Below, piece after piece: positions 1,088 to 35,500 of a stretch of DNA of 64,000 nt. The stretch is taken from NCBI GenBank assembly GCA_030615025.1, contig JAUXAB010000014.1, forward strand, positions 1 to 64,000, in the 5' to 3' direction. The number at the start of each line of letters is the position of its first letter. The first letter of the stretch is position 1. The notes below the pieces were generated by a model. That model made no database searches and was not told where the DNA came from. It worked only from the letters and a program-made list of their open reading frames with translations. Both the position numbers and the translations under genes were made by a program. Source of the DNA: Phycisphaerae bacterium. Lineage in GTDB: Bacteria > Planctomycetota > Phycisphaerae > Sedimentisphaerales > Anaerobacaceae.

Positions 1088-1181
1088 TATAATATAAAGA
1101 GAATTAAAACCCCGAGGTTGCCGTAAGGCAGCGTAGGGTAATTAAATTTTGCCGCCTCCAGCAGTGGGGGCGGCTTTTTTT
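1088..1181 (+). ncRNA. Candidate small RNA: TATAAT -10-like box, GNRA-capped hairpin, intrinsic terminator
   Basis: TATAAT at 1088-1093; AATTA..ACCC..GTTGCC-GTAA-GGCAGC..GGGTAATT hairpin at 1102-1144; GCCGCCTCC-AGCAGT-GGGGGCGGC-TTTTTTT at 1151-1181. No ORF. Confidence 0.4.
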
Positions 1182-2314: not shown

Positions 2315-4054
2315 TTAAAAAGCTTCGGGCAGAATCTTTCTTGCGGCGTCACGCAGATAGTTCGAAATCTGCCTTTCAGAGTTCATACCAAGTATTGTTC
2401 TGGCCAGGTTGTTGCAATCCTGCACCGTAACAGAGCGAATAATCTGCTTTATCTCCGGTATCATCGGCGGAGTAAGTGAAATCGTTCTAATGCCCATGCC
2501 CAGCAGCAGCATAATGTACTCCGGCTCAGAAGCCATCTCCCCGCAAACGCTAACGTCTATCTGCGCTTTGTGCGCATCTTGAATAACGGTCCTGATAAGC
2601 CGCAGCACCGCAGGGTCTGCTGCCGAGTATAATGTAGAAACCAATTCATTGCCCCTGTCAACAGCGAGAGTATATTGAATAAGGTCGTTTGTACCGATAC
2701 TTAGAAAATCGGCGTCTCTTGCAAGGGTAGATGCCGTCAAAGCCGCCGACGGCGTCTCAACCATAATCCCCACCTCGACATCCTTATTGTATTTTACAGA
2801 CTCCTCATTAAGGTCGTCCATAACATCGCGCAAAATCATCGTGGCCTGCTTCATTTCCTGCAGATTGCTGATCAACGGAAACATAATCTTGACATCGCCG
2901 AGAACGGACGCTCGCAAAATTGCGTGCATCTGCCTTTTGAACATCGTAAGGTTCTGCAGACAAAATCTGATGGATCTCAGCCCCAAAAACGGATTCGGCT
3001 CAGGTGCAAAACGCTTGCTTTGAGTATATTTATCGGCGCCAAGGTCGACAGTCCTTATTATCACAGGCCGATGCTTGAAAACGCCGATAGTCTCAGCATA
3101 GGCCTCGTAATGCTCCTGTTCCGTAGGTTCGCTCTCACGGTTAAGATACAAGAATTCCGTGCGATATAACCCTATGCCCTCTCCTCCTTTTTGCAAAACC
3201 ATCTCAGCCTCGTCCGGAAACTCGATATTGCCCAGCAATGTTATCTTTACGCCATCCCGTGTTACGGCCGGCTTTTCCCTTATCGCATCAAGTTTATGCT
3301 CAAGCTGTGCAAATTCCTGGGAATATTCTTCATACTGCTGGATTGTCTGTTCATCGGGATTTACAATGACAATACCGCGATTTCCGTCGATGATGACGGT
3401 ATCCCCACCGCTGACGCATTCTGTCAGGTCTTCGAGAGCGACCACGGCCGGGATACCTAAAGACCTGGCAACAATAGCGGTATGACTGGTTCTGCCGCCG
3501 GCATCGGTAGCAAGGCCTTTGACAAATTTCCTGTTAAAGGCGGCAGTTTGCGTAGGGCTCAATTCGCGAGCAACAACCGCAACTTCTTCGGTCAGATGCT
3601 CAACATCCTCACGCCTGCCGCCAAGAAGCTGTTTGAGCAAACGTCTTTCAATATCGTACATATCTGCCGCTCGCTCGCTGATATAAGCATCTTTTTGCTT
3701 AGCAAAATGTGATGCGATCTCTCGCATCGTCGCCGAAACTGCGTACTCTGCGGTTACCGATTCCGAGTAGACCAAATCCGTTATTCGCTTTCGCAGGCTC
3801 CTATCGTGCAGGAAGCGCAAATGCACGGCAAAAATATCCTTTATCTTGCCCCCTTCGGTATCATCCTGTGCCGCCTCAAACTCAGTCAACTCCCCAATTG
3901 CAGCTTTAAAGGCATCCCTTACGTGCTGAATCTCCATCATTCGCTGCGAAGGCTCAATTTGGCGCCGAGGAATTCGGTAATCTTCGGAATCGATAATCAG
4001 CAACTTGGCAATAGAAATGCCCGGCGAGACAGCTATTCCTTTTTTTATTTCCAT
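2315..4054 (-). CDS. ptsI: Phosphoenolpyruvate-protein phosphotransferase (PTS enzyme I)
   Basis: GGRTSHTAIVARSLGIPAVV (phospho-His site), GIGLYRTEFLYL, DFLSIGTNDLIQYTLAVDRGNE. Confidence 0.97.
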   Translation of the reverse strand: MEIKKGIAVSPGISIAKLLIIDSEDYRIPRRQIEPSQRMMEIQHVRDAFKAAIGELTEFEAAQDDTEGGKIKDIFAVHLRFLHDRSLRKRITDLVYSESVTAEYAVSATMREIASHFAKQKDAYISERAADMYDIERRLLKQLLGGRREDVEHLTEEVAVVARELSPTQTAAFNRKFVKGLATDAGGRTSHTAIVARSLGIPAVVALEDLTECVSGGDTVIIDGNRGIVIVNPDEQTIQQYEEYSQEFAQLEHKLDAIREKPAVTRDGVKITLLGNIEFPDEAEMVLQKGGEGIGLYRTEFLYLNRESEPTEQEHYEAYAETIGVFKHRPVIIRTVDLGADKYTQSKRFAPEPNPFLGLRSIRFCLQNLTMFKRQMHAILRASVLGDVKIMFPLISNLQEMKQATMILRDVMDDLNEESVKYNKDVEVGIMVETPSAALTASTLARDADFLSIGTNDLIQYTLAVDRGNELVSTLYSAADPAVLRLIRTVIQDAHKAQIDVSVCGEMASEPEYIMLLLGMGIRTISLTPPMIPEIKQIIRSVTVQDCNNLARTILGMNSERQISNYLRDAARKILPEAF

Positions 4055-4072
4055 TGTACACTTCTACAAATT

Positions 4073-4420
4073 CTAACGCTTCTTTTGATTGCTCGGTGTC
4101 GGCTCATCGAAATGCTTCTCTTCCACAAGCCCTCGCAAAGCATCGACTGCTTCTTGAGCATCTGCGCCTTCAGCTTTAATTTTTAGTTTGGTGCCGCAGG
4201 TTGCGGCAAGCATACTCATCTGCATAATACTCTTGCCGTCCACAGTATTTTGGTCATTGCTGACGGTAATATCGCAATCAAATTTGCTTGCAATGTCAAC
4301 AAACTGCATTGCGGGGCGCATATGAAGTCCCTCTGCGTTTTTTATCTGAACCAACGCTTCACAAACCACTTTCTGGGGTGAATCTTGTTCTGTCTGCATC
4401 ATCAGGCCCGGTTCCGCCAC
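4073..4420 (-). CDS. ptsH: HPr family phosphocarrier protein
   Basis: NAEGLHMRPAMQFVDIASKF and VDGKSIMQMSMLAA: His-15 and Ser-46 type sites. Confidence 0.92.
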   Translation of the reverse strand: MAEPGLMMQTEQDSPQKVVCEALVQIKNAEGLHMRPAMQFVDIASKFDCDITVSNDQNTVDGKSIMQMSMLAATCGTKLKIKAEGADAQEAVDALRGLVEEKHFDEPTPSNQKKR

Positions 4421-14527: not shown

Positions 14528-15562
14528 TTAGAAGAGGTATTTGACGGGCTGTTTTTTGAGCTCCTTCGCGGTCGGTAATAATTCGAACGAATCTATTTTT
14601 TCAGCTTCGATAAATCTGTTTATGACGTGCTGGATTTCGCCCATACTCCGGGCGTGCATCATCGCAAACAGATTGTACGGCCAATCTTCAAAGGTCTTCC
14701 GCTCGTAACAATGGCTCACAATCCTAAAACGAGCCAATCTTTCGCCGGCCTCGACAATCCTGTCCTGTGGAACCTGGCTTGCAAACAAGACGTTAGCCGT
14801 AAATCCGAGCTTGCGATGGTCGACAACAGCCGCTATCCGGCGGATGACACCGGAATCAATCAGCTCCTGTATGGTTCTTAGTAAATCTTCCTGTCCAAAG
14901 CCTTCACTGCATAAAAAGGCGAAAGGCTCCGAGGTCAAGCGCAGCTCTTCCTGCAATCCTGAGAGAATTCCTTTTTGATTTTCGTTCAACTCGACAGTAC
15001 CTGCTTGCGCGGGGACGAGTTTACTGGTGTGTAAGTCGGGGTCCTTCGGGAGGTGCGCGACATCCTGCAATAATCCGCCAGTGGCCCCGCCAGCGGCGGG
15101 TTCGCTCTCAGCATCAAAGCGGACATCAAGCTTAAAAACACGCTGAACAGGCAGACTGTGAAAATCAATGTCGAAACGGCCGGAAAGATTCGACAGCGTA
15201 AGCTCAATCTGTTTCCCCGTCTGCGCTTGTAAGGTAAACCATAAATTGTAGTAATGCTTCCTCAGGTAATTATGAGAGACATTCTCGAGAGCGTTAACCG
15301 CCTCGGCAACGGCCTGCAGACAATCCTGCGGAACATGGGCGACAACCAGAGTGCTTATCATACCGAGCGCTCGATAATTTATCAGCGCACAAATCCGCCG
15401 GATAACCCCCAGCTTTTTTAGCTGCTCGATTTCCTGCAGAACCGTCTTTTCATCGCTATTCAAATATTTCGCTAAATCGTCAAACGGCTCTGCACAAATT
15501 GGCAAGCCGTCCTGAAGTTCGTTGCATAATTGTTTTTGGAATTTTGTTAAACGCAAAGCCAT
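14528..15562 (-). CDS. ahbAB: Siroheme decarboxylase AhbA-AhbB fusion (Lrp/AsnC-like, NirDL-type)
   Basis: Two tandem HTH+AsnC-like modules: N-term ...NVSHNYLRKHYYNLWFTLQA (AhbA-like) and C-term ...SHCYERKTFEDWPYNLFAMMHA (AhbB-like). Confidence 0.85.
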   Translation of the reverse strand: MALRLTKFQKQLCNELQDGLPICAEPFDDLAKYLNSDEKTVLQEIEQLKKLGVIRRICALINYRALGMISTLVVAHVPQDCLQAVAEAVNALENVSHNYLRKHYYNLWFTLQAQTGKQIELTLSNLSGRFDIDFHSLPVQRVFKLDVRFDAESEPAAGGATGGLLQDVAHLPKDPDLHTSKLVPAQAGTVELNENQKGILSGLQEELRLTSEPFAFLCSEGFGQEDLLRTIQELIDSGVIRRIAAVVDHRKLGFTANVLFASQVPQDRIVEAGERLARFRIVSHCYERKTFEDWPYNLFAMMHARSMGEIQHVINRFIEAEKIDSFELLPTAKELKKQPVKYLF

Positions 15563-15910: not shown

Positions 15911-16680
15911 TTCCCGCGTTGACCAAGTGTCCTTTTTTCATAAGCATTTGTTAATACTTTATTTACGTTCATTTGACTTTTTCGGAAATTGGCTTTGTTT
16001 TGCATAAAAGGTCTAATTTGTAGAGGTCTCTCGACAGATGTAATGATATCTCGACAGATGTAGAGGACATAAGTGCATAAGGCACAAGTACTTAGGGCAT
16101 AAATTCGGGCTTTGGTGGCCATGATGGGAGCCTCCAACGGCAACAAGAATTTCAAATCTCAAATTTCACATTTCAAATTGCTAATCGCTATCCGATAAAT
16201 GCTCCCTCTATAATTAGACGGAAGCGCACGTTTGGTACGAAATTCGGGGGATTTTCCACCCTGCCGATTGACCTAAGTGCTTACGCAGAAAAGAGTAAAA
16301 AAAATTTTATTTTTTTGGGATTTTGGTGCTAACTATGCCCGGTTTTGGTCGCGCCTTTTTGCCTATTTTAACCCGCCAAACGGCGTGGCGGGCAAGCGCA
16401 GAGAAAGCCGCAATGTCAACTGATTTTGGCGCGGATTAACGCTGATTACACAGATTTATTGCCACGAAAAAGCAAAAAATGCACAAAAAGAAGAAAAAAA
16501 TGACCAAAAAAGTGCTTTATAAGCACATAAGTAGCTGGATCCCTGCCTAAAGCATGCAGGGACTCGGGCAGGCGGCGGAAGACCAATTAGTCGTTAGTTG
16601 AAAGAATTATGGCCGGACACCTTTAATTCTCGTAGTTTTTCTATTTTTTAGTTCTATGCCACCCGTGAGTAGCCCGCAGA

Positions 16681-19674
16681 CTATGTGCGTACTATCCGCG
16701 TCACACTGAAAATGAGTAGTGTTACTACCACCCAGCCGGCTAAGGTCTCAATGATGAGCCAAGCGCGAACAAAGCTGCCCTTAACCGGGAAGCCACGCTC
16801 TTCGGACAAAGAGAACCAACCATTCTTATTAGCATTAGGCTGCCAATAACTGCGCTGGTGCAGGTCGACCAGTGGGATAAATACGTCCAGGGAATACAAT
16901 AAGGCAGAGAATGCTGGATAGTCAGGGGAGATATGGCGGCCTTTCTCAGTATCTTCACTAACGTAGGCGGATTCTCTGACTGGCGTCATGACTTCTGTGC
17001 ATTCTGCCGCCCAGAAAACAGGCCAGCCGAGGAAGAGCAAAATAAGGCCGAATACGGCAGCTCTGAAGGGGCGATAGCCATAGCCAACAAAGAATCCCAG
17101 TAGCCGAAGCCCAAATCTATTGAGCCACGTCAAATTGGCGAATCTGAGTCTGTCTTTGTTCTTCGCAATGAGCAATTTTATGGCACCGGCATCGTCTCCA
17201 CTGGATAGGAGGACCTTCGCCAATTGCTCATAAGGCTGTGGCCAGAACTCTGTTTTAGCCTCCTCATTCTTGTCATTATATTGTCGCCGTATCCAATCGA
17301 TCCGTCGCTTGGCATCCCTGGGCACTTCCTTTACGTTGTGGATTTGGTCATAGACCAGTCCGTGAAGATATAATTGCCCCTTGTTTGGCCAACTCTTTTC
17401 ATCGTCTCGAATGGTTCCAATTCTGGCGTAACGAAGGTCGAGTCTTACTCTCTCCGTTGAGGTGATATCAGACCAGTAGAACATGCCTTTGATAATTGCA
17501 TGAACCAGGCTCACCTCCCCCTGGACCGTGAAGTCTTTGCGAAGAAATACAGATCCCTCGACTGTTAAGTTGTTGGCGAATAGAGCGATCCTCTTTTTCT
17601 CTTCGTTGTCTTCTTTATTTTCAGTGCTGAAATGCCCCGTTGTACAATCAAGCTTTCCGCTTATTGTGGCCCCTTGTAGAATGACCCCACCCTTCGCTAT
17701 AAAGCCGTTGCGAAGAAAAACGCTTCCTCGAACCTCGATGTTGTCAGCGATTAGAGCGTAGCCGGATTCATTTCTGAAGTGGCCCTCGTCACACTCAAGA
17801 TTCGTGCCGATCATAGCAGCCCGTAGGCGGACCTCTCCATCGGCCTCAAGGCCTTTAAGGAAGACTGCCCCCTCGACCTTCACGCCATCGGCGGCCAGGG
17901 CTTGGGCTTTTTCATTGCTGAAATGACCCTTCGAACAGTCAAGAGTTTTGCCGATCGCGGCCCCCAGCAGCCTAATTCCTCCCTTGGCCACAGCGTTGCG
18001 AAGAAACACGTTTCCCTCAACCTTCAAATCATCAGCGATGAGCGCACTGATGTCTTCGTCGTTATTCTCGGGTTCTATGGTGTTAATAAAATGGCCTTTA
18101 TCACAATCAAGGCTCCCATATATCGAAGACCCCACCAGCCAGACAGTGCCTTCAGCCTCAAGCTCTTTAAGAACGACGTTCCCCCCCACTTTCACTCGGT
18201 TCGCCGACAGCGAAGCGCCACCCAGATTGATGAACTTCCCCCTATAACAATTAAGGTCGCCGCCGATCGTTGCTCTAGACAATCTCACTCCTCCCTCAGC
18301 GATCAACCTGGCCTCTGGCTTCTCTTTCTCTTCGGGTTTGAACCGGCTGCTGCACAGCAGGACGGAACCCCCAACATGCACACCTTCCGCGAATATCGCT
18401 GGTCCATTTTGAGAAGCAAAATGACCACTATCAACGCTAAAATTAATCCTGATTCGACCACCAGCAATGCTAACAGTCCCATGAGCCATGAAGCCATGAC
18501 ATAAGAAAACACTGCCATTCACCTCCAACTGATTCGCGTCAATGGCAATACCATCAGGATTGATAAATTGGCCTTTTGTGCAATCAAGATCCCCACCAAT
18601 TTGGGCCCCAATTAGAACTACTCCACCCTGACTCTCGAACCCATCGCGAAGAAACACGCTGCCTCTTATGTCAAGCGAATCTGCGTTAATTGCGTACCCG
18701 TCAGGATTCACAAAGTGCCCTTTATCACATTCGAGGCTCTTTTCGATTTTCGCTCCCGAGAGGTACACTTCACCCTCAAAGGAACTCTTCAGGTGCATGC
18801 TCCCACCAACGTTTAGCGCTTCCCCGTCAAAGGCAAGTCCATCCCTGTTGGCAAACTGTGCCCCAATAGTCTCTAAGTTCCCACCGATTGTGGCGCCAGC
18901 CAAGCACACTTCCCCCATAGCCTGGAAATTGGTCTTCAGGAAGACATCTCCACCACACTTCAACAAGCTGAAATCGACAGCTCTACCACTCGGATTATCA
19001 AAATGCCCACCAGAGCAATGTAAGACACCTCTTATGCTAGCGCGGCATAAACTCACACGCCCATGTGCTTCAAAACCTGAGTCCATAAAACAGTTTCCCA
19101 TGATTGTGGAGTCATTCGCATTCAGAGCTGTTCTTTCCGCGTTTACAAACTGAGCGGCACAGCAATCCAGGTCGCCTTCGATCTGAGCGCGCATCAACTG
19201 AACTTGCCCTTCGGATCTGAAACCGTTCCGGAGCAATACGCTACCCTCAACTGTAATCCCATCCGCATTTATATCCCTCGTGTGACTACCCTTCAAACAC
19301 AGATCTCTTACGGTACCACAATGCAACTCGATTCTTTCTGAAAAACAACATCTTTCAAATTCAAGGGGAAATCGAACTTTGACGTACGGCATAAACAACT
19401 CCGAATCAAATCGCGCTCCCTTCACTACAATACCCCTGAATGTCACTAATTGTGATGCTTTTGCATCTGCACAGAGCCAAACAATTCGGTCTGCCTCAAT
19501 TACGCGTTCCGCACCCCAATTCTTTGCATCTGACGGATCGTTTTTCTTCTCATCCGGGTCGCTATAGTCAGCCAACGCTCCCGTTGCGACAGCTTTAAAG
19601 AGTGCCGTGTCAGCTTCCGTAAGAGTGCGAAACATTTCCGTGGCCAACTCAAGTAATTTCGATGTGTTGTCCAT
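16681..19674 (-). CDS. Large beta-helix repeat membrane protein with C-terminal TM signature
   Basis: More than ten ~45-aa repeats of the form GSVFLRxGFxAxGxVxLxGAxIGGxLDCxxGxFxNxxGxAxxADxxxVxG; C-term ALLYSLDVFIPLVDLHQRSYWQP...GWVVVTLLIFSVTRIVRT. Confidence 0.8.
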   Translation of the reverse strand: MDNTSKLLELATEMFRTLTEADTALFKAVATGALADYSDPDEKKNDPSDAKNWGAERVIEADRIVWLCADAKASQLVTFRGIVVKGARFDSELFMPYVKVRFPLEFERCCFSERIELHCGTVRDLCLKGSHTRDINADGITVEGSVLLRNGFRSEGQVQLMRAQIEGDLDCCAAQFVNAERTALNANDSTIMGNCFMDSGFEAHGRVSLCRASIRGVLHCSGGHFDNPSGRAVDFSLLKCGGDVFLKTNFQAMGEVCLAGATIGGNLETIGAQFANRDGLAFDGEALNVGGSMHLKSSFEGEVYLSGAKIEKSLECDKGHFVNPDGYAINADSLDIRGSVFLRDGFESQGGVVLIGAQIGGDLDCTKGQFINPDGIAIDANQLEVNGSVFLCHGFMAHGTVSIAGGRIRINFSVDSGHFASQNGPAIFAEGVHVGGSVLLCSSRFKPEEKEKPEARLIAEGGVRLSRATIGGDLNCYRGKFINLGGASLSANRVKVGGNVVLKELEAEGTVWLVGSSIYGSLDCDKGHFINTIEPENNDEDISALIADDLKVEGNVFLRNAVAKGGIRLLGAAIGKTLDCSKGHFSNEKAQALAADGVKVEGAVFLKGLEADGEVRLRAAMIGTNLECDEGHFRNESGYALIADNIEVRGSVFLRNGFIAKGGVILQGATISGKLDCTTGHFSTENKEDNEEKKRIALFANNLTVEGSVFLRKDFTVQGEVSLVHAIIKGMFYWSDITSTERVRLDLRYARIGTIRDDEKSWPNKGQLYLHGLVYDQIHNVKEVPRDAKRRIDWIRRQYNDKNEEAKTEFWPQPYEQLAKVLLSSGDDAGAIKLLIAKNKDRLRFANLTWLNRFGLRLLGFFVGYGYRPFRAAVFGLILLFLGWPVFWAAECTEVMTPVRESAYVSEDTEKGRHISPDYPAFSALLYSLDVFIPLVDLHQRSYWQPNANKNGWFSLSEERGFPVKGSFVRAWLIIETLAGWVVVTLLIFSVTRIVRT

Positions 19675-20721
19675 AAATAGATTCCAAACTAACACACTGG
19701 CAAACTAGGCAAACTAGGGATCGTAATCTATCAAATCTACACTACACCGCATTATCAAAATACGAATCAACCAAACAATTTCATATCTCATATTTAGTCG
19801 ATAGTCGTTAGTCTTTAGTATTTAGCTTGCAAAGATATCGCAGTTAATCCATCCCGCCAGTTGTCCATGTATAAAATAGCGGAGAACTTGAAAAACGTCA
19901 ATTTAATTTAGAATTGAGAAGGTAGAAGTCAGAGATAAGCAGCAAGGAGTAAGAATTGGGGATGGAGATTTCCGCTGTGCAGAAATGACAGCATGGGCTA
20001 AAGCCCATCCTACGCAACTTTCTTGCGAAAGCAAGAACGGGGGCTCCGCTCGAAATGACAGAAGTAAATAATGGTGGGGCAAGCCCCACCCTACCGCTCG
20101 ATGCTGGATAATCGTTAGTGAAGAGTGAGCTAAAGTGCCTAAAGTGAGCTAAAGTTGGATTCTCGATGCTTGTGAGTAGTTCATTGTTCATAGTTCGTAG
20201 TTTCCTTTGGCTTTGAACTTTTTAGGCGTGCCCCGCACCAAATTCGCTTAGGCTCACGCCTAATTGGTGCGGGACGATACGTGCGGTTCTCCGCTAAACC
20301 TTCGCCTGCTGGCTTCTGGCGTTTACCTGCTGGTAAACATACAAGCATTTTAACATATTATCAAACAAAAGTCAACAAAAAAATGACCAAAAAAAGCCTT
20401 TTTTGACCATACCCGTGAACCTGCCCTCGACTCCGATCGAGGGTCCCTGCATGTCGTAAGCAGGGAACCAGAATATTTAGCAGCGGTCTTTGGCCGGGTG
20501 TGCCAACGTAAGGAATGCTCTGCCCTCCCCCCTCACCTCCGGACGTAGGCATGTACTCTCTCTGAGTTTTCTGTACACTCTTGAGATTAATATGCCTAAT
20601 TCGAAAACCTTGATGGAAAAAGATTTGACAAATCTTCTTAAATCACGCAGAATCCACTTTTGACTTTATACTATACTCAGAAGAGTGTTGAAAACACCTT
20701 AATTTCAAAGGACACATTAAA

Positions 20722-21798
20722 ATGATAACAGATGTTCTGATTAGAAATTTCAAATGCTTCAAGAGCCTCACTGTTCCCGAACTTGGCCGCATAACACTGA
20801 TTTCAGGCCGAAACAACGTAGGCAAAACTGCTCTGCTCGAAGCTCTTTTTCTTTTCTGGGATATGCGCAATCCTGCCGTGACTATCCACCAATACGGTCG
20901 GCGCGGAATTGAACGGGTTACTCTAACAACAGAAGCAATGTGGGGACCAATATTTCGCAATTATGATATGGATGGGGAAATTCTTATTTCTTTAACTATA
21001 AATGGCAACCCTGAACAAGTAACATTTCGGTTTAATCGGGAATTTGCACCTCTGCCTCCAACGACGGTCCAAGCTGAAGAACAGCAAATTTCTACTGAAG
21101 AGGAACTTACTGCTTTAGCTATGGACATCGAATATATCACCAAATCAGGTGAAAAAATCACTTTACATCATTTCCCTGACCCCAATAACAAAAACCGTCC
21201 CACCATACAAACTAAAACAAGTCCTGCAAAAATATCACTGCCTCCGGCCGGTTTTTTTGCAAGCAAAAAACATATTCAGGCAAAAGGAATTGCAGAACAA
21301 TTCAGTAAATTAGCGCAACAAGATCGGGAAAACGAAGCTGTTGATTTTCTTAAGATCATCGAACCCCGCCTTGAAGGTCTAAAAATCATCAAAGAAGGCG
21401 CAATTTCGACTGTTCATGGCAAATTGAAAGGCATTCCACGAACTATTCCAATCAATTTTATGGGTGAAGGCATGGAAAAACTCCTGGCTCTTATGGTTGG
21501 TATCGCACATTCAACTAACCACATCATTTTTCTCGATGAGATGGAAAACGGTCTTCACTATTCTATTATGCCCAAGATTTGGGAGGCCCTCGGTAAGGCA
21601 CTTCGCAAATATGACTGCCAGCTTATCACCACAACCCACAGCTACGAATGCCTTCAGGCAGCATACGAAGGTCTTTCTGAAATGCAAGAGGACTTCAGAT
21701 ACATCCGCCTCAACCGAAAAGGCGAGGATGTATCTGCCAAGCTGTCAAACTATGAGATGATCGGCACTGCAATAAAAACAGAACTGGAGGTAAGATGA
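20722..21798 (+). CDS. AAA (SMC/OLD-like, AAA_15/AAA_21) ATPase
   Basis: FKCFKSLTVPELGRITLISGRNNVGKTALLEAL (Walker A); HIIFLDEMENGLHYSIMPKIWEAL (Walker B); QLITTTHSYECLQAA. Confidence 0.88.
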   Translation: MITDVLIRNFKCFKSLTVPELGRITLISGRNNVGKTALLEALFLFWDMRNPAVTIHQYGRRGIERVTLTTEAMWGPIFRNYDMDGEILISLTINGNPEQVTFRFNREFAPLPPTTVQAEEQQISTEEELTALAMDIEYITKSGEKITLHHFPDPNNKNRPTIQTKTSPAKISLPPAGFFASKKHIQAKGIAEQFSKLAQQDRENEAVDFLKIIEPRLEGLKIIKEGAISTVHGKLKGIPRTIPINFMGEGMEKLLALMVGIAHSTNHIIFLDEMENGLHYSIMPKIWEALGKALRKYDCQLITTTHSYECLQAAYEGLSEMQEDFRYIRLNRKGEDVSAKLSNYEMIGTAIKTELEVR

Positions 21799-21799
21799 T

Positions 21800-22417
21800 T
21801 TGCCCAAGCCAGAAACGATAACCCACAAAAAGCTTCTACTTGCAGAAGGCCGAGACGCCGAGTTATTTCTTGTATGGGCAGGTAGACACTTCCGTCCTGA
21901 GATAGACTTTCAAGTAATGGACTTTGGGGGCATTAAGGAGCTAACTAATTTTCTCAAATTGTTAGCTAACGACGAATCTTACGACAATGTTGAAACCATA
22001 GTAGTAGCTCGTGATGCCGAAACGGATGCTAAAGCTGCAATAGAGAGCATTCAAAATTCTATGAGGTTAGCAGAGATACCGGTACCTGAAAAACCTTTTG
22101 AGTACACACAAGAATCTTCTTTTAAAACCGCATTTATGATTTTTCCAGGCCCCGAAAACCCAAGTGGTCGGTTAGAAGACCTCTGTCTTTTGACAGTCGA
22201 AAGTGATCCTTTATTGGAATGTGTGGATGACTATTTGGAATGTGCAAAGGCCAAAGGGGAGCAACTTCCTCGTATTCACAAAAGCAAACTCCATGCTTTT
22301 TTAGCGGGTAAAAAAGATTATGCTGGTTTGCCTATAGGATTAGCTTCGCGTGAAAAGGCTTGGGATTTTGAACACCCTTCCTTAGAACCATTTAAGAGGA
22401 TTATCCAAGAAATGTAA
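21800..22417 (+). CDS. DUF3226 domain protein (Toprim-like)
   Basis: LLLAEGRDAELFLVW (E-G-x-x-[DE]), ETIVVARDAETDA (DxxxD), GLPIGLASREKAWDFEHPSLEPFKRI; TTG start just after the ATPase stop. Confidence 0.75.
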   Translation: MPKPETITHKKLLLAEGRDAELFLVWAGRHFRPEIDFQVMDFGGIKELTNFLKLLANDESYDNVETIVVARDAETDAKAAIESIQNSMRLAEIPVPEKPFEYTQESSFKTAFMIFPGPENPSGRLEDLCLLTVESDPLLECVDDYLECAKAKGEQLPRIHKSKLHAFLAGKKDYAGLPIGLASREKAWDFEHPSLEPFKRIIQEM

Positions 22418-22455
22418 TACCATTGACCAATCCTTCTTCCTCAAAAATGAATCTT

Positions 22456-22529
22456 CCTGCGGCAAGCCGCAGGGTATCTAACTTCAATAAGGAAATATAC
22501 TTGTTTTCACCCTGTGGCAAGCCACAGGG
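22456..22529. repeat. Two hairpins sharing a GGCAAGCC core with different complementary arms
   Basis: CCTGCGGCAAGCCGCAGG (22456-22473); CCCTGTGGCAAGCCACAGGG (22510-22529). Confidence 0.75.
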
Positions 22530-22618
22530 AATTATCAAGTTAAAACTCGCACAACGCGTTATTCACTAATTACCGTACCGACATGGGCGCAGGTGCGGGC
22601 ACATGTTGTTCGTTGCCG

Positions 22619-22819
22619 TCAGTCAGCTACGATTCGTTTCAACAACTTGCTCTTGATCTTCTCGTAATCAGCTTGCTCGATAAGTCCTTCGTCGAGGAGC
22701 TGCTTTGCTTTGAGCAGTTCTTCCTTGGGATCCTTTGCATTCTTGAGTTTGTACAGATTATAGATCAGTACTGCTACGATCAGAACTATCCACGTTATTG
22801 CTTCTGACCAGTCACACAT
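22619..22819 (-). CDS. SHOCT-domain small membrane protein
   Basis: N-terminal TM then DPKEELLKAKQLLDEGLIEQADYEKIKSKLLKRI. Confidence 0.75.
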   Translation of the reverse strand: MCDWSEAITWIVLIVAVLIYNLYKLKNAKDPKEELLKAKQLLDEGLIEQADYEKIKSKLLKRIVAD

Positions 22820-23097
22820 TCCGGCCTCCTTTCATCTTCATAGTCGGCCAACTATGTATATATGGTTTCTGTATCTCACATTTCCCATTTAACCGCTCAA
22901 AGAACATAATTTCATCCGTTCGATGTCACTAATTCTACCCCAATCGCTCTCGAATTCCAATATTTCTTCAACCCTAACTCTCTCGCCCTAAGCTGCGACC
23001 AAGTCAGCTAACCAAAAGCGTGCTGGCGATGCACACAAAAGAAGGTAAAAGTCAAAGGGAAAAATAGATTTATTATTTACTATTGATTATTTGGTTT

Positions 23098-23130
23098 GAG
23101 ATTGCCGCGGCCTGCCGGCCTCGCAATGAC
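23098..23130. repeat. Dispersed palindromic intergenic element, copy B
   Basis: GAGATTGCCGCGGCCTGCCGGCCTCGCAATGAC; shares the preceding TATTGATTAT run with copy A. Confidence 0.6.
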
Positions 23131-23166
23131 ATCGAGCATCGAGAATCAAGCATCGAGTATCAAGAG

Positions 23167-24156
23167 CTAAATCCGTTTTGCAACATCTTTTGCAAAATAG
23201 CTAATAATTATATCAGCTCCTGCCCGCTTAATCGCGGTGAGCATTTCGAGCATTGCCGGCCCTTTATCTAATAACCCTGCCTGGGCGGCGGAGTTTAGCA
23301 TCATATACTCGCCGCTGACATTATAGGCAGCTATCGGACAATCGAAACGCTGCCGCGCTCGACATATAATGTCGAGGTAAGGAAGTGCCGGCTTGACCAT
23401 AACGATATCGGCACCTTCTTCTATATCGAGTGCAATCTCGGCCATCGCCTGGTCGCTGTTTGCGGGGTCCATCTGATAGCTCTTGCGGTCGCCGAAGGAA
23501 GGGGCGGATTCGACGGCGTCCCTGAACGGCCCGTAAAAAGCAGAAGCGAATTTTGCTGCGTATGACATAATTGCTGTCCCGTGGAAGCCGTTCTGTTCGA
23601 GGGTCTGGCGGATGTAACTTACGCGGCCATCCATCATGTCCGACGGAGCAACTATATCAGCACCGGCTTGGGCGTGTGACAGTGCCATCTTGGCCAGCAG
23701 CTCGCAGGTGGAGTCGTTATCGATTTTGCCGTCTTTAATCATACCACAATGGCCATGTTCGGTGTATGCACAAAGGCAAACATCGGTAATAACAAGCAAT
23801 TCGGTAGCGGCTTTTTTGATTTCCTTAATTGAGCGCTGGACGACGCCGGCTTCGGCCCAGGCTTCTGAGCCGGTCTCATCTTTTTTGCCCGGCAGGCCGA
23901 AAAGAAGCACCGCAGGTATCCCCAGAGAAGCAACTTCGGCGGCCTCGGCGGCGACCGTGTCCGGCGAAAAGTGAAAACAGTCTGTCATCGATTTAATCGG
24001 CTCCTTGAGACGTTGGCCATCGCGGACAAACAATGGATAAACCAGATCATCGATACTTAAAGAAGTTTGGCGCACCAATCTTCGCATAGCGCTAGTTGAG
24101 CGCAGCCTTCGCATTCTAATTTTCGGAAAAGCCATGATAAAACCCCTTATCTCCAA
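23167..24156 (-). CDS. hemB: Porphobilinogen synthase (delta-aminolevulinic acid dehydratase)
   Basis: [72 protein letters not shown]. Confidence 0.97.
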
Positions 24157-24157
24157 C

Positions 24158-25690
24158 TTACGTTTTACGTTTTTCGCTTCTCTCTATAGCATCAAGTAAT
24201 CCATCAATAGTATGTTCGGTGGCCTGGACGTCAACCTTGACACCAAGATTTTTCAATTGTTCAGAAGTGACCGGCCCAATCGACGCGACTTTGACATTAC
24301 TTGAGTTTACTAAATCGGCCTGGATCTGTTCAAGAAATCCCTTCGCCGCCGAAGGACTTGCAAATGTGAGCCAATCAATCGCCCCGCCGCTAATTTTCTC
24401 TGTCAGCCAGGCACAATCACTTTTTGCCGTTACCGCAGTATAGATAGGGACATTGTCAACTTCGGCACCGGCTTGCTGCAAGAGGTCGGCAAGCTCGTTG
24501 GAAGCAATCTGTGAGCGTAAGAGCAAAACCTTTTTGCCCTGCAGATTGGTAAAGCAAATCAATTGTTTGGCGAGGTCTTTGCTTGTAAAGATGGTGGAGA
24601 CAAAATCGGGCCTTGTGCCGAATTCAGCGAGTCTGTTTGCGGTTTGTCTGCCGATTGCGGCGATTTTAGCGGAAGCAAAGACCCTGGCGTCCTTATCAAA
24701 ATCCCGCAGGCGATCGAAGAAAATGTTTACGCCGTTTGCGCTGGTGAAGATTATCCAATCGTAGTCAGGGAGTCTGCTGAGCGTCTGCAGGAACTTGTTC
24801 GTCTGTGTCAAAGGTTTGATTTCGAGCGTTGTAAAATCGATTGGGCTGCCGCCCTGCTGAATGATCTTAGCGGCAAAGTCGGCGTTGCCACGACGGTCGC
24901 GAGTTACAACAATACTCTTTCCAAACAATGGTTTCTTCATAAACCAGCTCAGCTTTGTGTCGCTGTCTGCTGCATTACCAATAACCACTATGGCCGGCGG
25001 TTCGATCTTTTCCTGCTTGCACTTATCAGCTATCAGCCGAAGTGCAGCTTTTGTTGTTCTTTGAGTGGGCATAGTGGCGTCAGCAATGACTGCTACAGCG
25101 GTGTCATCTTTCATTCCATTTTTTATAAGCTGTTCAGCGATGAACTGGAGAGTGCCCATAGCCATATAGAAGACTATAGTACCGCGAAATTTTGCAAGCA
25201 GGTGCCAGTCGATATTGGTGTCTTTTTTTCCTTCCGCTTCATGGCCGGTGATGAAAACGACCTGCGAGCTATAGTCTCTGTCGGTGAGCATAATGCCGGC
25301 GTACTCAGCGGCGGCGATTGCAGCGGTTACGCCAGGTACTATCTCGAAATCGATTCCGGCTTCAGCAAGAATTTTAGCTTCTTCAGCACCTCTGCCGAAG
25401 ATGCAGGGGTCGCCGCCTTTTAGCCGTACAACCGTTTTTCCGCTGGAGGCCTTTTCAATCAGCAGCTTATTGATTTCTTCTTGCGTGAAGGACCGTCCGC
25501 CGATGCGTTTAGGGACGTGGATAATCTCGGCATCTGCGCCAGCGTAATTCAACAAGGCCGGATTGGCCAGCTTATCGTAGATTATGCAGTCGGCTGACTT
25601 TAGAACCTCTGCCCCGCGGACAGTAATCAAATCCGCCCTTCCGGGGCCGGCACCGACGAGATATACCTTACCTTTATTTCCTTGAGACAT
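24158..25690 (-). CDS. cobA-hemD: Uroporphyrinogen-III C-methyltransferase / uroporphyrinogen-III synthase fusion
   Basis: [53 protein letters not shown]-terminal HemD module [35 protein letters not shown]. Confidence 0.95.
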
Positions 25691-25766
25691 TAAACTCGAA
25701 ATCCGAAATTCGAAGCACGAAACAAATTCGAATTATCAAATGAACAAATATTTCAAACAGATAAAA

Positions 25767-25792
25767 CCCCCAAATAAATTTGGGGGCTAAAC
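25767..25792. repeat. Hairpin element with GCTAAA tail
   Basis: CCCCCAAATAAATTTGGGGGCTAAAC. Confidence 0.65.
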
Positions 25793-25852
25793 ATTTAACC
25801 AGAATACCAAATATATTTTGAAATTGCCAGTACTTGCGGCCTTTTCAGGCGG

Positions 25853-26776
25853 TCATCTTTCTAATGCTTCTAAGATCTTACTGCCGCCGGAGGAGAGGAG
25901 CTGTTTGGCGATATTTTCTGCGAGGCTTTCGGCCTGTACGGTTGGGCCGGTGATTTCTCGCTTAATGAAATTTTTGCCCTGCAAATCGGAAATAAATGCG
26001 GTGATTTTTATATCATCTCCAGCAATCTTCGCAAAGGCCCCTACCGGGGCGTGACATCCGCACCGCATTGTCACCAGGACCTGCCTTTCCGCAAAAGTAA
26101 CCGTTCTGATTTTTTGGTCGTCTATGGCGGCGATGAGCTGGCACGTCCTGCTATCATCGGTCCTTGTCTGAATGGCCAGCGCGCCCTGAGCGGGGGCGGG
26201 AATGAACTCAGTCGGGTCGAAACAGAAAGAGATTTTATCAGTCTGGCTGAGCCTCTCCATGCCGGCGCGGGCCAAGACAATGGCATCAAATTTTCCCTCT
26301 TGGAGGCGTTTTATTCGCGTTAAGACGTTGCCTCTAATATCGGTCGGCTGGAGGTCAGCCCTTATATATCTTAGCTGAGCGGCCCGCCTTAGACTCGAAG
26401 TGCCAATTTTGGCAGCGTGGGGAAGGTGTTCGATTGAAGTGACCGAATCAGCGGCTATCAGACAATCTTCGGCAAATTGCCGCTGACATACGGCAGTGAT
26501 GGTCAGTCCATCTCGGTGACGGGTGGGCAGGTCCTTGAAACTGTGGACGGCAAAGTCGGCATCTGCCGCCAGTAGAGCATCTTCCAGCTTCGAGGTAAAA
26601 AAGCCGGTGTCCTTTAGATGCCATAAAGCCGTGCGTCTGTCCCGGTCGCCTCTGGTAGTTATTTTTCTAATTTTGACCAGCAAGCCCGGATGGATTTTTT
26701 TCAGCAAAGAGGAGACGATCTCAGTTTGAGCAATGGCGAGCTCGCCGCCACGAGTTGCAACAGTAAGAACCTTCAT
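25853..26776 (-). CDS. hemC: Hydroxymethylbilane synthase
   Basis: VATRGGELAIAQTEIV; FAVHSFKDLPT; GTSSLRRAAQLRYIRADLQPTDIRGNVLTRIKRL; VTMRCGCHAPVGAFA (dipyrromethane Cys). Confidence 0.96.
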   Translation of the reverse strand: MKVLTVATRGGELAIAQTEIVSSLLKKIHPGLLVKIRKITTRGDRDRRTALWHLKDTGFFTSKLEDALLAADADFAVHSFKDLPTRHRDGLTITAVCQRQFAEDCLIAADSVTSIEHLPHAAKIGTSSLRRAAQLRYIRADLQPTDIRGNVLTRIKRLQEGKFDAIVLARAGMERLSQTDKISFCFDPTEFIPAPAQGALAIQTRTDDSRTCQLIAAIDDQKIRTVTFAERQVLVTMRCGCHAPVGAFAKIAGDDIKITAFISDLQGKNFIKREITGPTVQAESLAENIAKQLLSSGGSKILEALER

Positions 26777-32928: not shown

Positions 32929-33486
32929 ATGACATTAAAATCGCAAGAAAGCTGCGACGAAGCGTTGGTTGAAGCTGCCCAAAGCGGCCATTTGGAAAGC
33001 TTCGGCGCTCTTTACGAGCGGTATCACAGCCCTATGATGGCATTAGCTTATTCTATGCTCGGCGACAGAGACCTTGCCGAGGATGCCGCACAGGAGACGT
33101 TTGCGATAGCCTGCCGCGACCTGCTAAGTCTGAGGCACAGTGATAAATTTGCCGCCTGGCTGGCCAGTATATGTAGAAATGTTGCCCGGAGCAATCTTCG
33201 GTCGAAAGGTAAATCTGCGGCTGTGAATTTTCAGGAATGCGTAGAAAATCAAAATGACGAAGATAATCGCCGGGATGCGATTAGGGAAGCTGTTTGGAAA
33301 CTGAGGCCTGCCGAGAGAGAGTTGATAGTTTTGCGTTACTACGATGGATTTTCTCAGGCACAAATTTCCAACGTTCTTGATATTTCGCCTCAGGCAGTCA
33401 ATGGCCGACTTTTCAGAGCAAAGCGAAAGATTGCAAAGTACTTAAGACGCAGCGGTTTCACGGGAGAAAATTATGGAACGGTTTGA
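32929..33486 (+). CDS. ECF sigma factor (cassette 1)
   Basis: DRDLAEDAAQETFAIACRDL (region 2) and LRPAERELIVLRYYDGFSQAQISNVLDISPQAVNGRLFRAKRKI (region 4). Confidence 0.93.
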   Translation: MTLKSQESCDEALVEAAQSGHLESFGALYERYHSPMMALAYSMLGDRDLAEDAAQETFAIACRDLLSLRHSDKFAAWLASICRNVARSNLRSKGKSAAVNFQECVENQNDEDNRRDAIREAVWKLRPAERELIVLRYYDGFSQAQISNVLDISPQAVNGRLFRAKRKIAKYLRRSGFTGENYGTV

Positions 33487-34750
33487 AGATAAAAACTGGC
33501 TTGATGAAGCACTTACCGAAGCGATTTGTTCGGAAGGTAAGAAGCCGGACTTCGAGAAGTGGAAACAGGAACACCCGGAAGCCGTTGAAATGTTGGCCTC
33601 GCGGGCGGATGGGAAACCATCAGCACCCACACGCCCGCTCAATATAGGGAGAATAATTATGAAGAGTCCAATCACAAAATTAGCCGCTGCGGCGGTGATA
33701 ATTATAGGTGTGCTTGTATCAATACATCTTTGGGACAGGTCAATACCCTCAGCATCCGCGGCTCAGTTGCTTCAGGACGCGATTGATGCGGTATCCGACG
33801 TGTGGTCGGTGTATATGAAGGCCCGAATGCGTACACTTCCAAGAGACAACTTCTCTAACATTGGATTAAACTACGACTTTGTTGATATCGAGATGTGGAA
33901 ACATACTAACACAAATGGACAGATGCAATGGCGTGTGGAAAAATCCGGGCGTGTACTTCTTATGGACGGCCACAAAACTATAATGCTCATACGGCCGAAT
34001 TACGGCGTCTTAAACAAACGCCCCTTACCCCTGGGCTGTTACGACAGTTGGTCGGGCCGCTTATTGAACGTGCACGATTTGTTGGACAATGAGTTACAAA
34101 ACGCAAAGAATAATCCCGACCGTGAAGTCTGTCTCAGGCACGAGGAAGTTGAAGGAACGGATAAAATCGTACTTGAGGTCAATGTAACAACATCCGTTCC
34201 TGAGAATGACTATCTTAGAAATAAATTTATCCAGGAATCCGACCATGTGAAGGTATATCAGTTTGATGCGAAGACAAAATTACTGGAAGCTCTTCAGGTG
34301 TATGTACACACGACAGATGAGGATGTTCTGATTTTTGAAGTAACTGACATCGAATACAATATAGAGATTGACGATAGCGTATTTACGCTGGATTTTCCGG
34401 AAGATATGATTTGGAGAAGAGAGCCGGAGATACTGCCGGATAACAAGCGATATGAAAAAATGACCCCGACGGAGGCAGCAGAAACATTCTTCAAAGCCTG
34501 TGCAGAAGAAAACTGGGAAGAAGTGTTGAAGTTCTGGACGGCCTCACGTATTGACGAACGCTTGAAGGCCTACCTCGGCGGTCTTGAGATTATATCCATA
34601 GGTGAGCCATTTCAATCCAAAGGCTACAGTCGCAAAGGCTGGCTTGTTCCTTATGAGATTCGTCTTAAATCCGGTGGTGTCAAGAAACATAACTTAGCAA
34701 TACGAAAAGACAATGACGCCAACCGTTTTGTAGTTGATGGTGGAATTTAA
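33473..34750 (+). CDS. Membrane protein with N-terminal cytoplasmic segment, TM and extracytoplasmic LolA-like domain; putative anti-sigma/sensor (cassette 1)
   Basis: Overlaps sigma gene by 14 nt; NIGRIIMKSPITKLAAAAVIIIGVLV; NIEIDDSVFTLDFPEDM. Confidence 0.75.
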   Translation: MERFEDKNWLDEALTEAICSEGKKPDFEKWKQEHPEAVEMLASRADGKPSAPTRPLNIGRIIMKSPITKLAAAAVIIIGVLVSIHLWDRSIPSASAAQLLQDAIDAVSDVWSVYMKARMRTLPRDNFSNIGLNYDFVDIEMWKHTNTNGQMQWRVEKSGRVLLMDGHKTIMLIRPNYGVLNKRPLPLGCYDSWSGRLLNVHDLLDNELQNAKNNPDREVCLRHEEVEGTDKIVLEVNVTTSVPENDYLRNKFIQESDHVKVYQFDAKTKLLEALQVYVHTTDEDVLIFEVTDIEYNIEIDDSVFTLDFPEDMIWRREPEILPDNKRYEKMTPTEAAETFFKACAEENWEEVLKFWTASRIDERLKAYLGGLEIISIGEPFQSKGYSRKGWLVPYEIRLKSGGVKKHNLAIRKDNDANRFVVDGGI

Positions 34751-34789
34751 CGAAGCAACCTGATTATCTTATTAACCTTGTGTCCCAAA

Positions 34790-34822
34790 AAGGCTGAGCT
34801 TTTTGCTCGGCCTTTTTTTTTT
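34790..34822 (+). terminator. Intrinsic terminator after cassette 1
   Basis: AAGGCTGAGC-TTTTT-GCTCGGCCTT followed by a T run. Confidence 0.8.
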
Positions 34823-34954
34823 GTGGTTTTTTCATGTGAATAATGGCATTTTGGAGTAAATGGCGTCGAATTTCGATAAAAATTTATACCCAAAACAGTA
34901 ACTCAGTTGTGTTATAAGTGACGGTCATCCTGGGCCTGGGAAAGTAACTGACTG

Positions 34955-35500
34955 ATGCTCGAAGATAAAGTGCTCATATGGAAGTTTAAGTATGGGAGCA
35001 GTGATGCTCTCTGCCGTATTTACGAAAAGTACAAAAAAGACTTATTGAAGCTTGCGACTATTCTTTTAAATGATGTTAGTGATGCTGAAGATAGTGTGCA
35101 CGATGTCTTTTTATCATTTACGCAATCCGCGGATAAAATAAAGCTCAGTGGGAACCTTAAGAGCTATTTGCTGACATGTGTTGCTAATTGCGCCCGAAAC
35201 AAGAACCGAGCAAATCAGCAACGTAAAACCGTCGGGCTGGACAAAGCAGAACCAATTATCTCACATTCAAAGACACCTGTGCAATGGATTATACAAAGTG
35301 AAGAATTGAGGCGATGGAGCGATGCACTGGCACAACTTCCATATGAGCAGCGAGAGGTGGTAATCCTGCACCTGAGAGCTGGAATGAAATTCAGACAAAT
35401 AGCCAAGTTACAGGATATTTCAATCAATACAATCAAAGGGCGTTATCGATATGGGCTGGATAAGCTGCGGTCCATCTTAAATCGTGGGGCAAAAAAATGA
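34955..35500 (+). CDS. ECF sigma factor (cassette 2)
   Basis: DVSDAEDSVHDVFLSF; LPYEQREVVILHLRAGMKFRQIAKLQDISINTIKGRYRYGLDKLRSIL. Confidence 0.92.
   Translation: MLEDKVLIWKFKYGSSDALCRIYEKYKKDLLKLATILLNDVSDAEDSVHDVFLSFTQSADKIKLSGNLKSYLLTCVANCARNKNRANQQRKTVGLDKAEPIISHSKTPVQWIIQSEELRRWSDALAQLPYEQREVVILHLRAGMKFRQIAKLQDISINTIKGRYRYGLDKLRSILNRGAKK

What the first reader, a model, noticed from the sequence alone, without database searches (positions are those of the whole stretch)
20722..22417. Two-gene ATPase + DUF3226 (Toprim-like) module, candidate anti-phage system
Seen: OLD/SMC-like ATPase (GRNNVGKT, FLDEMENGLH) directly followed by a DUF3226 protein with EGRDAE and RDAETD acidic motifs. Established: PARIS pairs an AAA ATPase (AriA) with a DUF4435 Toprim protein (AriB), and OLD/Gabija systems combine ABC-type ATPases with Toprim nucleases. 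Inference: this is a split OLD/PARIS-like system using DUF3226 as effector. It sits alone between hairpin-rich noncoding stretches.
Basis: partly seen in the sequence, partly recalled or inferred. Interest (0 to 1): 0.7.

Follow-up and report, generated by a model that had tools for sequence, protein, structure and literature searches.

The report
Mobile ATPase–Toprim nuclease defence cassette
Two neighbouring genes, a sensor-like ATPase and a Toprim-type nuclease, travel between unrelated bacteria as a bare 1.8-kb unit and most likely form an anti-phage suicide system of a kind already catalogued as a candidate but apparently never tested.

Summary
In detail: an OLD-type ATPase gene (20722-21798) is followed after one base by a DUF3226 gene (21800-22417). 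AlphaFold models and fold comparison show that DUF3226 is a Toprim domain closest to OLD nucleases; the OLD two-metal catalytic residues have counterparts (E16, D19, D72-x-E74, E126, K161). The pair is near-obligate: 76 of 79 testable ATPase-first loci and 27 of 27 testable DUF3226-first loci. It is patchy (24 of 392 genomes of the phylum), moves horizontally as a roughly 1.81-kb unit (20610-22419) with unrelated flanks, and relatives are carried by 3.8-4.2-kb enterobacterial plasmids (DUF3226 relative in 144 of 72,556 plasmid records). It is not PARIS (no DUF4435). It matches PADLOC's unpublished candidate PDC-M38, with an AbiL-type ATPase. So it is a new member of a known, apparently untested kind. 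What I did not find described: gene trees of the ATPase and the nuclease conflict strongly, with breakpoints at the gene junction, so sensor and effector are reassorted naturally. Best mechanism: the ATPase holds the nuclease inactive and releases or activates it on infection (inferred). No phage protection has been shown.

The parts
20610..22419 (+). transferred unit: the stretch shared with relatives whose flanks are unrelated
   Evidence: blastn of window 16000-26000 against 10 relatives: G007 shares exactly 20610-22419; most others start at 20556-20625 and end at 22327-22447 (distant G012 and L061 match only in pieces); outside it only two short repeat-like matches
20625..20653 (+). promoter-like site TTGACA-17-CAGAAT, conserved
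   Evidence: 10 of 12 consensus matches, though the scan found as many sites as in shuffles; TTGACA kept in 9 of 9 aligned sequences, window included
20722..21798 (+). OLD/AbiLi-type ABC ATPase, 358 aa (Walker A 29-36, DE-x-ENG-x-H 272-279, TTHS 304-307, C-terminal E-x-R)
   Evidence: Pfam AAA_15/AAA_21; PADLOC AbiLi 2.5e-56, PDC-M38A 9e-51; model pLDDT 89.8; fold matches
21800..22417 (+). DUF3226 Toprim nuclease, 205 aa, TTG start one base after the ATPase stop
   Evidence: Pfam DUF3226 4e-20; PADLOC PDC-M38B 1.9e-6; model pLDDT 96.6; folds PH0156 Z 12.2, OLD Toprim Z 9.6; catalytic positions conserved
21799..21806 (+). gene junction where identity between relatives changes abruptly (recombination breakpoint)
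   Evidence: break after 21802 for G046/G007, G046/G129 and L054/G007 and after 21806 for window/G046; none of 2000 permutations reached the observed value

Best explanation
A two-gene immune cassette of the ABC-ATPase plus Toprim-nuclease kind. The DUF3226 protein is a two-metal Toprim nuclease and the harmful effector. The OLD/AbiLi-type ATPase is the regulator and presumed sensor: it assembles into a multimer, holds the nuclease inactive, and on a phage signal releases or activates it; cleavage of a nucleic acid (by analogy with AriB more likely RNA such as tRNA than DNA, unsettled) then stops growth before phage release. Shown here: pairing, Toprim fold, conserved catalytic residues, ATPase motifs, patchy distribution, horizontal transfer as a bare unit, carriage on minimal plasmids, reassortment of the two genes. 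Inferred: defence, toxicity, sequestration, trigger, substrate.
For: Toprim fold and active site: model against OLD Toprim, GajA and the PARIS complex entry; E16, G44, D72 and E126 in 59 of 59, K161 in 58 of 59, D19 in 51 of 59, residue 74 D or E in 59 of 59, in the order of BpOLD E400, E404, D455, D457, E508, K562 (PMC6755086, passages). Obligate pairing: 20 of 20 regions of the order; 76 of 80 ATPase-first loci, one more cut by a contig end; 27 of 28 DUF3226-first places above the cut-off, the last at a contig end. So the nuclease was never seen without the ATPase, while the ATPase stands alone in 3 of 80, as expected if the nuclease is harmful alone. Defence-like spread: 24 of 392 genomes above the cut-off; closest relatives lie in other genera (DUF3226 89, 86 and 83% in G146, G007, G129 against 61 and 29% in congeners G080, G112) although their HemB-like protein is more distant (78, 78, 76% against 83-84%). 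Minimal plasmids. PADLOC match of both genes. Some relatives next to Type III restriction (L108) or DpdF (L107). Relatives with function: FnuAbiLii is toxic in E. coli (PMC3985639, passages); two AAA + TOPRIM_OLD pairs are among neutralisation-validated toxin-antitoxin pairs (PMC10440598, passages); AriB is a tRNase held by AriA (PMC12409363, passages).
Against: No phage protection is known for this pair. The window's locus is not a defence island. The neighbourhood comparison is weak and not properly controlled. AbiLi of F. nucleatum did not neutralise its AbiLii, and deleting ariA was not toxic in the B185 system, so an antitoxin role is not general. The ATPase fold alone is as close to SMC/Rad50 heads as to PtuA or GajA. 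An archaeal OLD protein, Cran1, is a cell-cycle factor and not a defence protein (PMC12796447, passages).
Confidence: 0.72

Rival explanations
1. A plasmid- or element-stabilising toxin-antitoxin pair: the nuclease is the toxin, the ATPase the antitoxin, and the benefit is persistence of the carrier rather than defence.
For: The DUF3226 gene was never seen alone; relatives are the main cargo of small plasmids; AAA + TOPRIM_OLD pairs scored as toxin-antitoxin.
Against: The chromosomal copies of the window group are single bare units without replication or transfer genes. An ATPase with full Walker, signature and H-loop motifs is more than an antitoxin needs. Some copies are broken in place (ATPase frameshift in L033, stop in the DUF3226 gene of L028) without evident harm. 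The two functions can coexist.
Confidence: 0.15
2. An anti-plasmid or DNA-restriction device: ATPase and Toprim together recognise and cut foreign DNA directly, as Gabija or Wadjet do, without killing the cell.
For: The OLD Toprim domains nearest in fold are DNA nucleases; the ATPase fold resembles SMC/Rad50 heads.
Against: Relatives are themselves carried by plasmids; no helicase or loop-extruding partner is adjacent; the best-studied split relative, AriB, cuts tRNA.
Confidence: 0.08
3. A housekeeping DNA-repair or cell-cycle pair of the RecF/SMC/Cran1 sort.
For: ATPase fold; the archaeal OLD protein Cran1 precedent.
Against: Absent from 368 of 392 genomes of the phylum at the curated cut-off, no conserved neighbours, horizontal transfer, broken copies.
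Confidence: 0.05

Closest known systems
PADLOC candidate PDC-M38 (PDC-M38A + PDC-M38B)
   Same: Both proteins match: ATPase 9e-51 over its full length, nuclease 1.9e-6; 45 of 45 related ATPases and 50 of 59 related DUF3226 proteins match M38A and an M38B model.
   Different: Nothing structural. PDC systems are unpublished candidates found by guilt-by-embedding and mostly untested (PMC12988326 and PMC11811056, passages); no held paper names PDC-M38 or DUF3226.
AbiL (AbiLi + AbiLii), Lactococcus
   Same: The ATPase matches the AbiLi model best of all (2.5e-56, whole length); two-gene order of ATPase then Toprim effector.
   Different: The effector is DUF3226; the AbiLii model matches it at only 5e-4 and 3 of 59 relatives at 1e-3 or better; AbiLii is described as RloB-like.
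PARIS (AriA + AriB), class 4 OLD
   Same: Split ABC ATPase and Toprim nuclease; ATPase matches AriA at 3.7e-22; fold match to 8ux9_A, Z 6.5 over 165 residues.
   Different: No DUF4435; the AriB model matches 3 of 59 relatives at 1e-3 or better and not the window's own protein; trigger and assembly unknown.
OLD class 1, Gabija GajA and retron OLD nucleases
   Same: Same Toprim fold and order of catalytic residues; related ATPase.
   Different: There both domains are in one polypeptide; here two genes, and no GajB helicase among the adjacent genes.
PH0156 (PDB 2p62), Pyrococcus horikoshii
   Same: Nearest solved structure to the DUF3226 model (Z 12.2, rmsd 3.5, 189 residues).
   Different: Deposited as a hypothetical protein; its gene neighbours were not examined here.

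Membership tests
PDC-M38 | ATPase matching PDC-M38A | tested here: met
   9e-51, residues 1-358 on 1-383 of 383; 45 of 45 relatives
PDC-M38 | adjacent partner matching PDC-M38B | tested here: met
   1.9e-6, residues 44-205; 50 of 59 relatives. PADLOC's own system rule and cut-offs were not run
PDC-M38 | protection against phage | not testable with these tools
   needs phage challenge
AbiL | AbiLi-type ATPase | tested here: met
   2.5e-56 over its whole length
AbiL | AbiLii (RloB-like) partner | tested here: inconclusive
   AbiLii model 5e-4 over residues 53-168, 3 of 59 relatives; Pfam lists DUF3226 and no RloB among hits at E up to 1
PARIS | AAA_15 or AAA_21 ATPase above Rousset's score limits | tested here: met
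   78.1 bits (limit 32) and 65.4 bits (limit 27)
PARIS | DUF4435 partner of at least 27 bits | tested here: not met
   no DUF4435 among Pfam hits at E up to 1; rule from PMC9122126
PARIS | AriA hexamer holding three AriB; Ocr as trigger | not testable with these tools
   complexes cannot be modelled here
OLD classes 1-3 | ATPase and Toprim in one polypeptide | tested here: not met
   two genes, one base between them
Gabija | GajB UvrD-like helicase next to the nuclease gene | tested here: not met
   next ORFs downstream are a 66-aa SHOCT protein and a 329-aa HemB-like protein (HemB named from recall)
Toprim nuclease | invariant glutamate, glycine after strand 2, DxD motif | tested here: met
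   E16, G44 and D72 in 59 of 59; second acid is E in 34 and D in 25, so DxE in the window
Toprim nuclease | metal-dependent nucleic-acid cleavage | not testable with these tools
   needs purified protein

The most novel reading that the evidence does not exclude
A naturally reassorting sensor-effector immune cassette: recombination at the junction of the two genes swaps the Toprim effector under one ATPase (G046 against G007), and recombination inside the ATPase swaps the sensor core over one effector while the C-terminal part of the ATPase stays with it (G146 against the window). If real, the ATPase C-terminal region is the effector-contact module and the rest the phage-sensing module, and minimal plasmids of about 4 kb carry the cassette as dedicated defence plasmids.
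Probability: 0.4. Interest if true: 0.65.

Novelty: new member of a known kind. Interest (0 to 1): 0.48.

Why it matters
DUF3226 is still called a protein of unknown function, and no paper in the held library uses the name. The structural and conservation evidence makes it a Toprim nuclease effector, which can be tested with a handful of point mutants. The pair is small (about 1.8 kb), self-contained and already lies on natural enterobacterial plasmids, so a laboratory E. coli test is straightforward. The observed exchange of sensor and effector halves, if confirmed, would give natural chimeras for mapping which part of an OLD-type ATPase senses phage and which part controls the nuclease, an open question for PARIS, AbiL and their relatives.

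Tried and rejected
PARIS membership: rejected for lack of DUF4435. Gabija and retron: rejected, no helicase or reverse transcriptase recognised among the adjacent genes (neighbours recognised partly from recall). A noncoding RNA partner: nothing in Rfam, and the hairpins lie partly in repeats of the whole genome.

Viral origin: no relative of the DUF3226 protein in viral contigs with the single-protein scan. The ATPase profile found 5 viral contigs, 1 with a DUF3226 partner (L133) and 4 near-identical ones with the ATPase alone. No match in 50,697 phage records for the window's two proteins or the plasmid DUF3226 protein. The window's own DUF3226 protein finds no plasmid; the plasmid relatives came through the ATPase.

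Defence-island test: weak. In 22 loci, 93 near genes (of 120 found within 2.5 kb in 29 loci; the rest left out for the 50,000-residue limit) matched 79 PADLOC models at 1e-15; 97 far genes (of 120 sampled out of 139) matched 35. These are counts of models, not of genes, many models are redundant, and near genes are longer. Of 8 near genes then scanned one by one, 3 were clear defence matches in two loci (L108 Type III methyltransferase and restriction enzyme; L107 DpdF), 1 had only weak helicase matches and 4 none. The BREX-like hits were not traced to a locus. I draw no enrichment claim.

Structure: the sequence search of the PDB with P0002 alone gave nothing; with the profile A5, PH0156 at 6e-4. 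Foldseek ranked only one entry at E 0.001 or better, an OLD Toprim domain (6njx, 6e-4). Flavodoxin-like folds (succinyl-CoA synthetase, Z up to 8.8) also score, so the Toprim call rests on PH0156 and OLD covering the whole chain plus the residues, not on Z alone. I had no access to model coordinates, so the active-site geometry was not measured.

Recombination: the pairs tested were picked after seeing the identities, so the AU and permutation values are not strict probabilities; all sequences are from metagenome assemblies, and chimeric contigs are not excluded, though several independent assemblies agree. Across the wider family the two genes still track each other (distance correlation 0.87 over 40 pairs, 0 of 2000 permutations as high), so swapping is a local event.

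Literature: no match for DUF3226 or PDC-M38 in the held open-access library. The search on small plasmids listed 8 papers, seen as a listing only. The preprint behind the PDC names and the ABC-ATPase classification (PMC7544218) are not held and were not read. All papers cited were seen as found passages only.

Full report
What is there. Pfam gives AAA_15 (1.3e-21) and AAA_21 (1.2e-17) for the first and DUF3226 (4e-20) for the second. The window lies in a 3.9-Mb, 79%-complete genome assembly; named near relatives are planctomycete MAGs (Sedimentisphaerales, Phycisphaerales, Anaerohalosphaeraceae), so I take the host to be one of these (inference).

What the second protein is. With 59 relatives as alignment, AlphaFold2 gave a model of pLDDT 96.6. 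Its nearest solved folds are PH0156 of Pyrococcus (Z 12.2, rmsd 3.5, 189 residues), then the OLD Toprim regions 6nk8 (Z 9.6, 161 residues) and 6njv (9.3, 169), with T7 primase (9.3, 115 residues), GajA (7.0) and the PARIS entry 8ux9_A (6.5) lower down. Unrelated flavodoxin-like folds reach Z 8.8 over 113 residues, so fold alone is not proof. The residues settle it: E16, G44, D72 and E126 are invariant in 59 of 59 rows, K161 in 58, D19 in 51, and position 74 is E in 34 and D in 25. The order and spacing follow the catalytic set of Burkholderia OLD (E400, E404, D455, D457, E508, K562; PMC6755086, passages); E404 lies four residues after E400 where D19 lies three after E16, and K161 lies closer to E126 than K562 does to E508, so those two matches are looser. 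I infer a two-metal Toprim nuclease; cleavage itself is untested.

What the first protein is. Model pLDDT 89.8. Foldseek's best hits mix Rad50, PtuA, OLD, retron ATPases and GajA; by Z the SMC/Rad50 heads lead (20.1), with PtuA 18.7 and GajA 18.4 within two units. Invariant in 45 of 45 relatives: G29, N31, G34, K35, R61, D272, E273, E275, N276, G277, H279, Q300, T305, H306, E309, R329; the chain ends in E-x-R (E356 44 of 45, R358 43 of 45). It is a compact ABC ATPase with no room for SMC coiled coils. PADLOC's AbiLi model matches it over its whole length (2.5e-56), then PDC-M38A (9e-51) and AriA (3.7e-22).

The pair is the unit. In 20 of 20 fetched regions of the same order the ATPase directly precedes the DUF3226 gene (in one, L033, the ATPase is split in two frames). 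Of 80 loci fetched from GTDB genomes by the ATPase profile, 68 pass a strict adjacency rule, 7 more overlap further only because of the first-start ORF rule, and L117's partner is DUF3226 by Pfam (7e-8): 76 of 80. L120 is cut by its contig end, and L071, L073 and L087 have the ATPase alone. Conversely, of 28 DUF3226 places above the curated cut-off in the phylum, 27 have the ATPase beside them and one lies at a contig end. So the nuclease is not found without the ATPase in these samples, while the ATPase can stand alone. Record titles name Planctomycetota, Armatimonadetes, Desulfobacterales, Chloroflexi, Lachnospiraceae, Acidobacteria and an ANME-2c archaeon among the hosts (some MAG labels look wrong).

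It moves. DUF3226 is present above cut-off in 24 of 392 genomes of the phylum and 25 of 148 of the order. The window's copy is nearest to copies in other genera (89% G146, 86% G007, 83% G129), while congeners G080 and G112 have only distant copies (61%, 29%) and G065 none (G148 not searched). Two conserved genes of the window show the expected order instead: the HemB-like protein 83-84% in congeners against 76-78% in G146, G007 and G129, and the ORF at 46672 80-91% against 65-76% counting partial pieces. DNA similarity with ten relatives is confined to about 20610-22419, apart from two short repeat-like matches; G007 shares exactly that stretch. It carries a conserved TTGACA box at 20625 (9 of 9 aligned). 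No integrase or transposase is part of it. Relatives also sit on tiny plasmids: a 3793-bp Salmonella plasmid annotated with ATP-binding protein plus DUF3226, and 4167-bp Klebsiella plasmids, where the DUF3226 gene spans the record start of the ColRNAI-typed one examined. In all, 144 of 72,556 plasmid records hold a relative of that DUF3226 protein, 138 of them Klebsiella, and 153 a relative of the ATPase. I examined the pair in two records directly; in rows that I compared between the two listings (NZ_CP040727, NZ_CP024435) the two matches are adjacent.

The site. In the window the cassette lies between a siroheme-decarboxylase-like gene (14528-15562; Pfam) and a haem-synthesis block (HemB-like and two more, named from recall). 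In congener G080 the same two flanks enclose about 7 kb of other genes, among them an FRG-domain gene (PADLOC PDC-S15, 1.6e-66) and a nucleotidyltransferase/HepT pair (PDC-S09, 1.9e-37). The other three congeners have the haem block without the cassette beside it, but their contigs or gene order do not show the other flank. So the interval is variable and in two of two comparable genomes carries defence-candidate genes; two cases are an anecdote, not a statistic.

Sensor and effector are reassorted. G046 and G007 are 92.3% identical up to the junction and 70.1% after it, with the change after 21802; G046/G129 and L054/G007 break at the same base. The window and G146 are 63.8% identical up to 21606 and 90.0% after it, so there the ATPase core was replaced and its C-terminal part kept with the effector; their first 60 bases are nearly identical again. 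Control pairs are much flatter: G007/G129 (88.9 and 83.8%; 165 of 2000 permutations as high) and window/G144 (95.9 and 87.8%, break elsewhere; 7 of 2000). Gene trees conflict accordingly: in the ATPase tree G046 groups with L054, G007 and G129 (100/99), in the DUF3226 tree with G080, L054 and G018 (100/99), and the window joins G144 in one and G146 in the other (both 100/99). Holding window and G146 together in the ATPase data costs 200 log units; holding G046 with G007 and G129 in the DUF3226 data costs 165. The groups were chosen after the fact. Over 40 pairs of the wider family the two genes still co-vary (r 0.87).

How it most likely works. By analogy with PARIS, where an AriA hexamer holds three AriB and releases the tRNase on sensing a phage protein (PMC12409363, passages), and with AbiL-type pairs, whose Toprim half can be toxic (PMC3985639; PMC10440598), I propose that the ATPase multimer restrains the DUF3226 nuclease and frees or activates it on infection, stopping the cell. 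Shown: fold (predicted), residues, pairing, mobility. Inferred: restraint, trigger, substrate, cell arrest. Probability that it is defence of this general kind 0.72; that the substrate is RNA perhaps 0.5.

Known or new. Both genes match PADLOC's PDC-M38, one of the candidates from guilt-by-embedding that remain mostly untested (PMC12988326, passages). In the held library no paper uses DUF3226 or PDC-M38. It is not PARIS by rule, and AbiL only in its ATPase.

Noticed in passing
L150 (NZ_CP070894.1) 2579-4167 and on across the record start; L151 (NZ_AP026957.1) 535-2289: Relatives of the pair are the main cargo of 3.8-4.2-kb enterobacterial plasmids; 144 of 72,556 plasmid records hold the DUF3226 relative, 138 of them Klebsiella. 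In NZ_CP070894.1 the DUF3226 gene runs across the record start and is missing from the gene table.
   Followed up: partly
window 16681-19695: 1004-aa repeat-rich protein with a hydrophobic C-terminus beside the cassette; Pfam only weak bactofilin (0.0048), no PADLOC match, found in 1 of 5 genomes of the genus, its own.
   Followed up: partly
window 32929-41164: Four consecutive sigma-factor-like genes each followed by a longer partner gene (ORF starts 32929, 34955, 37439, 39375), looking like tandem paralogues by eye.
   Followed up: no
window 20095-20408: Dispersed repeat of the genome: most of the 48 matches of the upstream kilobase in the own assembly fall here.
   Followed up: partly
L149 5977-12905: Congener's version of the interval between the siroheme-decarboxylase-like gene and hemB holds an FRG gene (PDC-S15) and a nucleotidyltransferase/HepT pair (PDC-S09) instead of the cassette.
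   Followed up: partly
L071 9001-10086, L073 1736-2767, L087 4860-5936: Related ATPases without any DUF3226 partner; in L071 the next gene is a MutS-like 859-aa ORF.
   Followed up: no
L033 8008-9118; L028 9086-9640; L047; L174; L180: Broken copies: split ATPase in L033, in-frame stops reported in the DUF3226 gene of G144 (L028), L047, L174 and L180.
   Followed up: no
window 1142-1738: NYN/LabA-like nuclease gene matching PADLOC HEC-09 (9.9e-20).
   Followed up: no
L061, L067: MAG labels look wrong: a locus titled Actinomycetes carries a cassette nearly like the planctomycete ones, and one titled Bordetella parapertussis carries a distant one.
   Followed up: no
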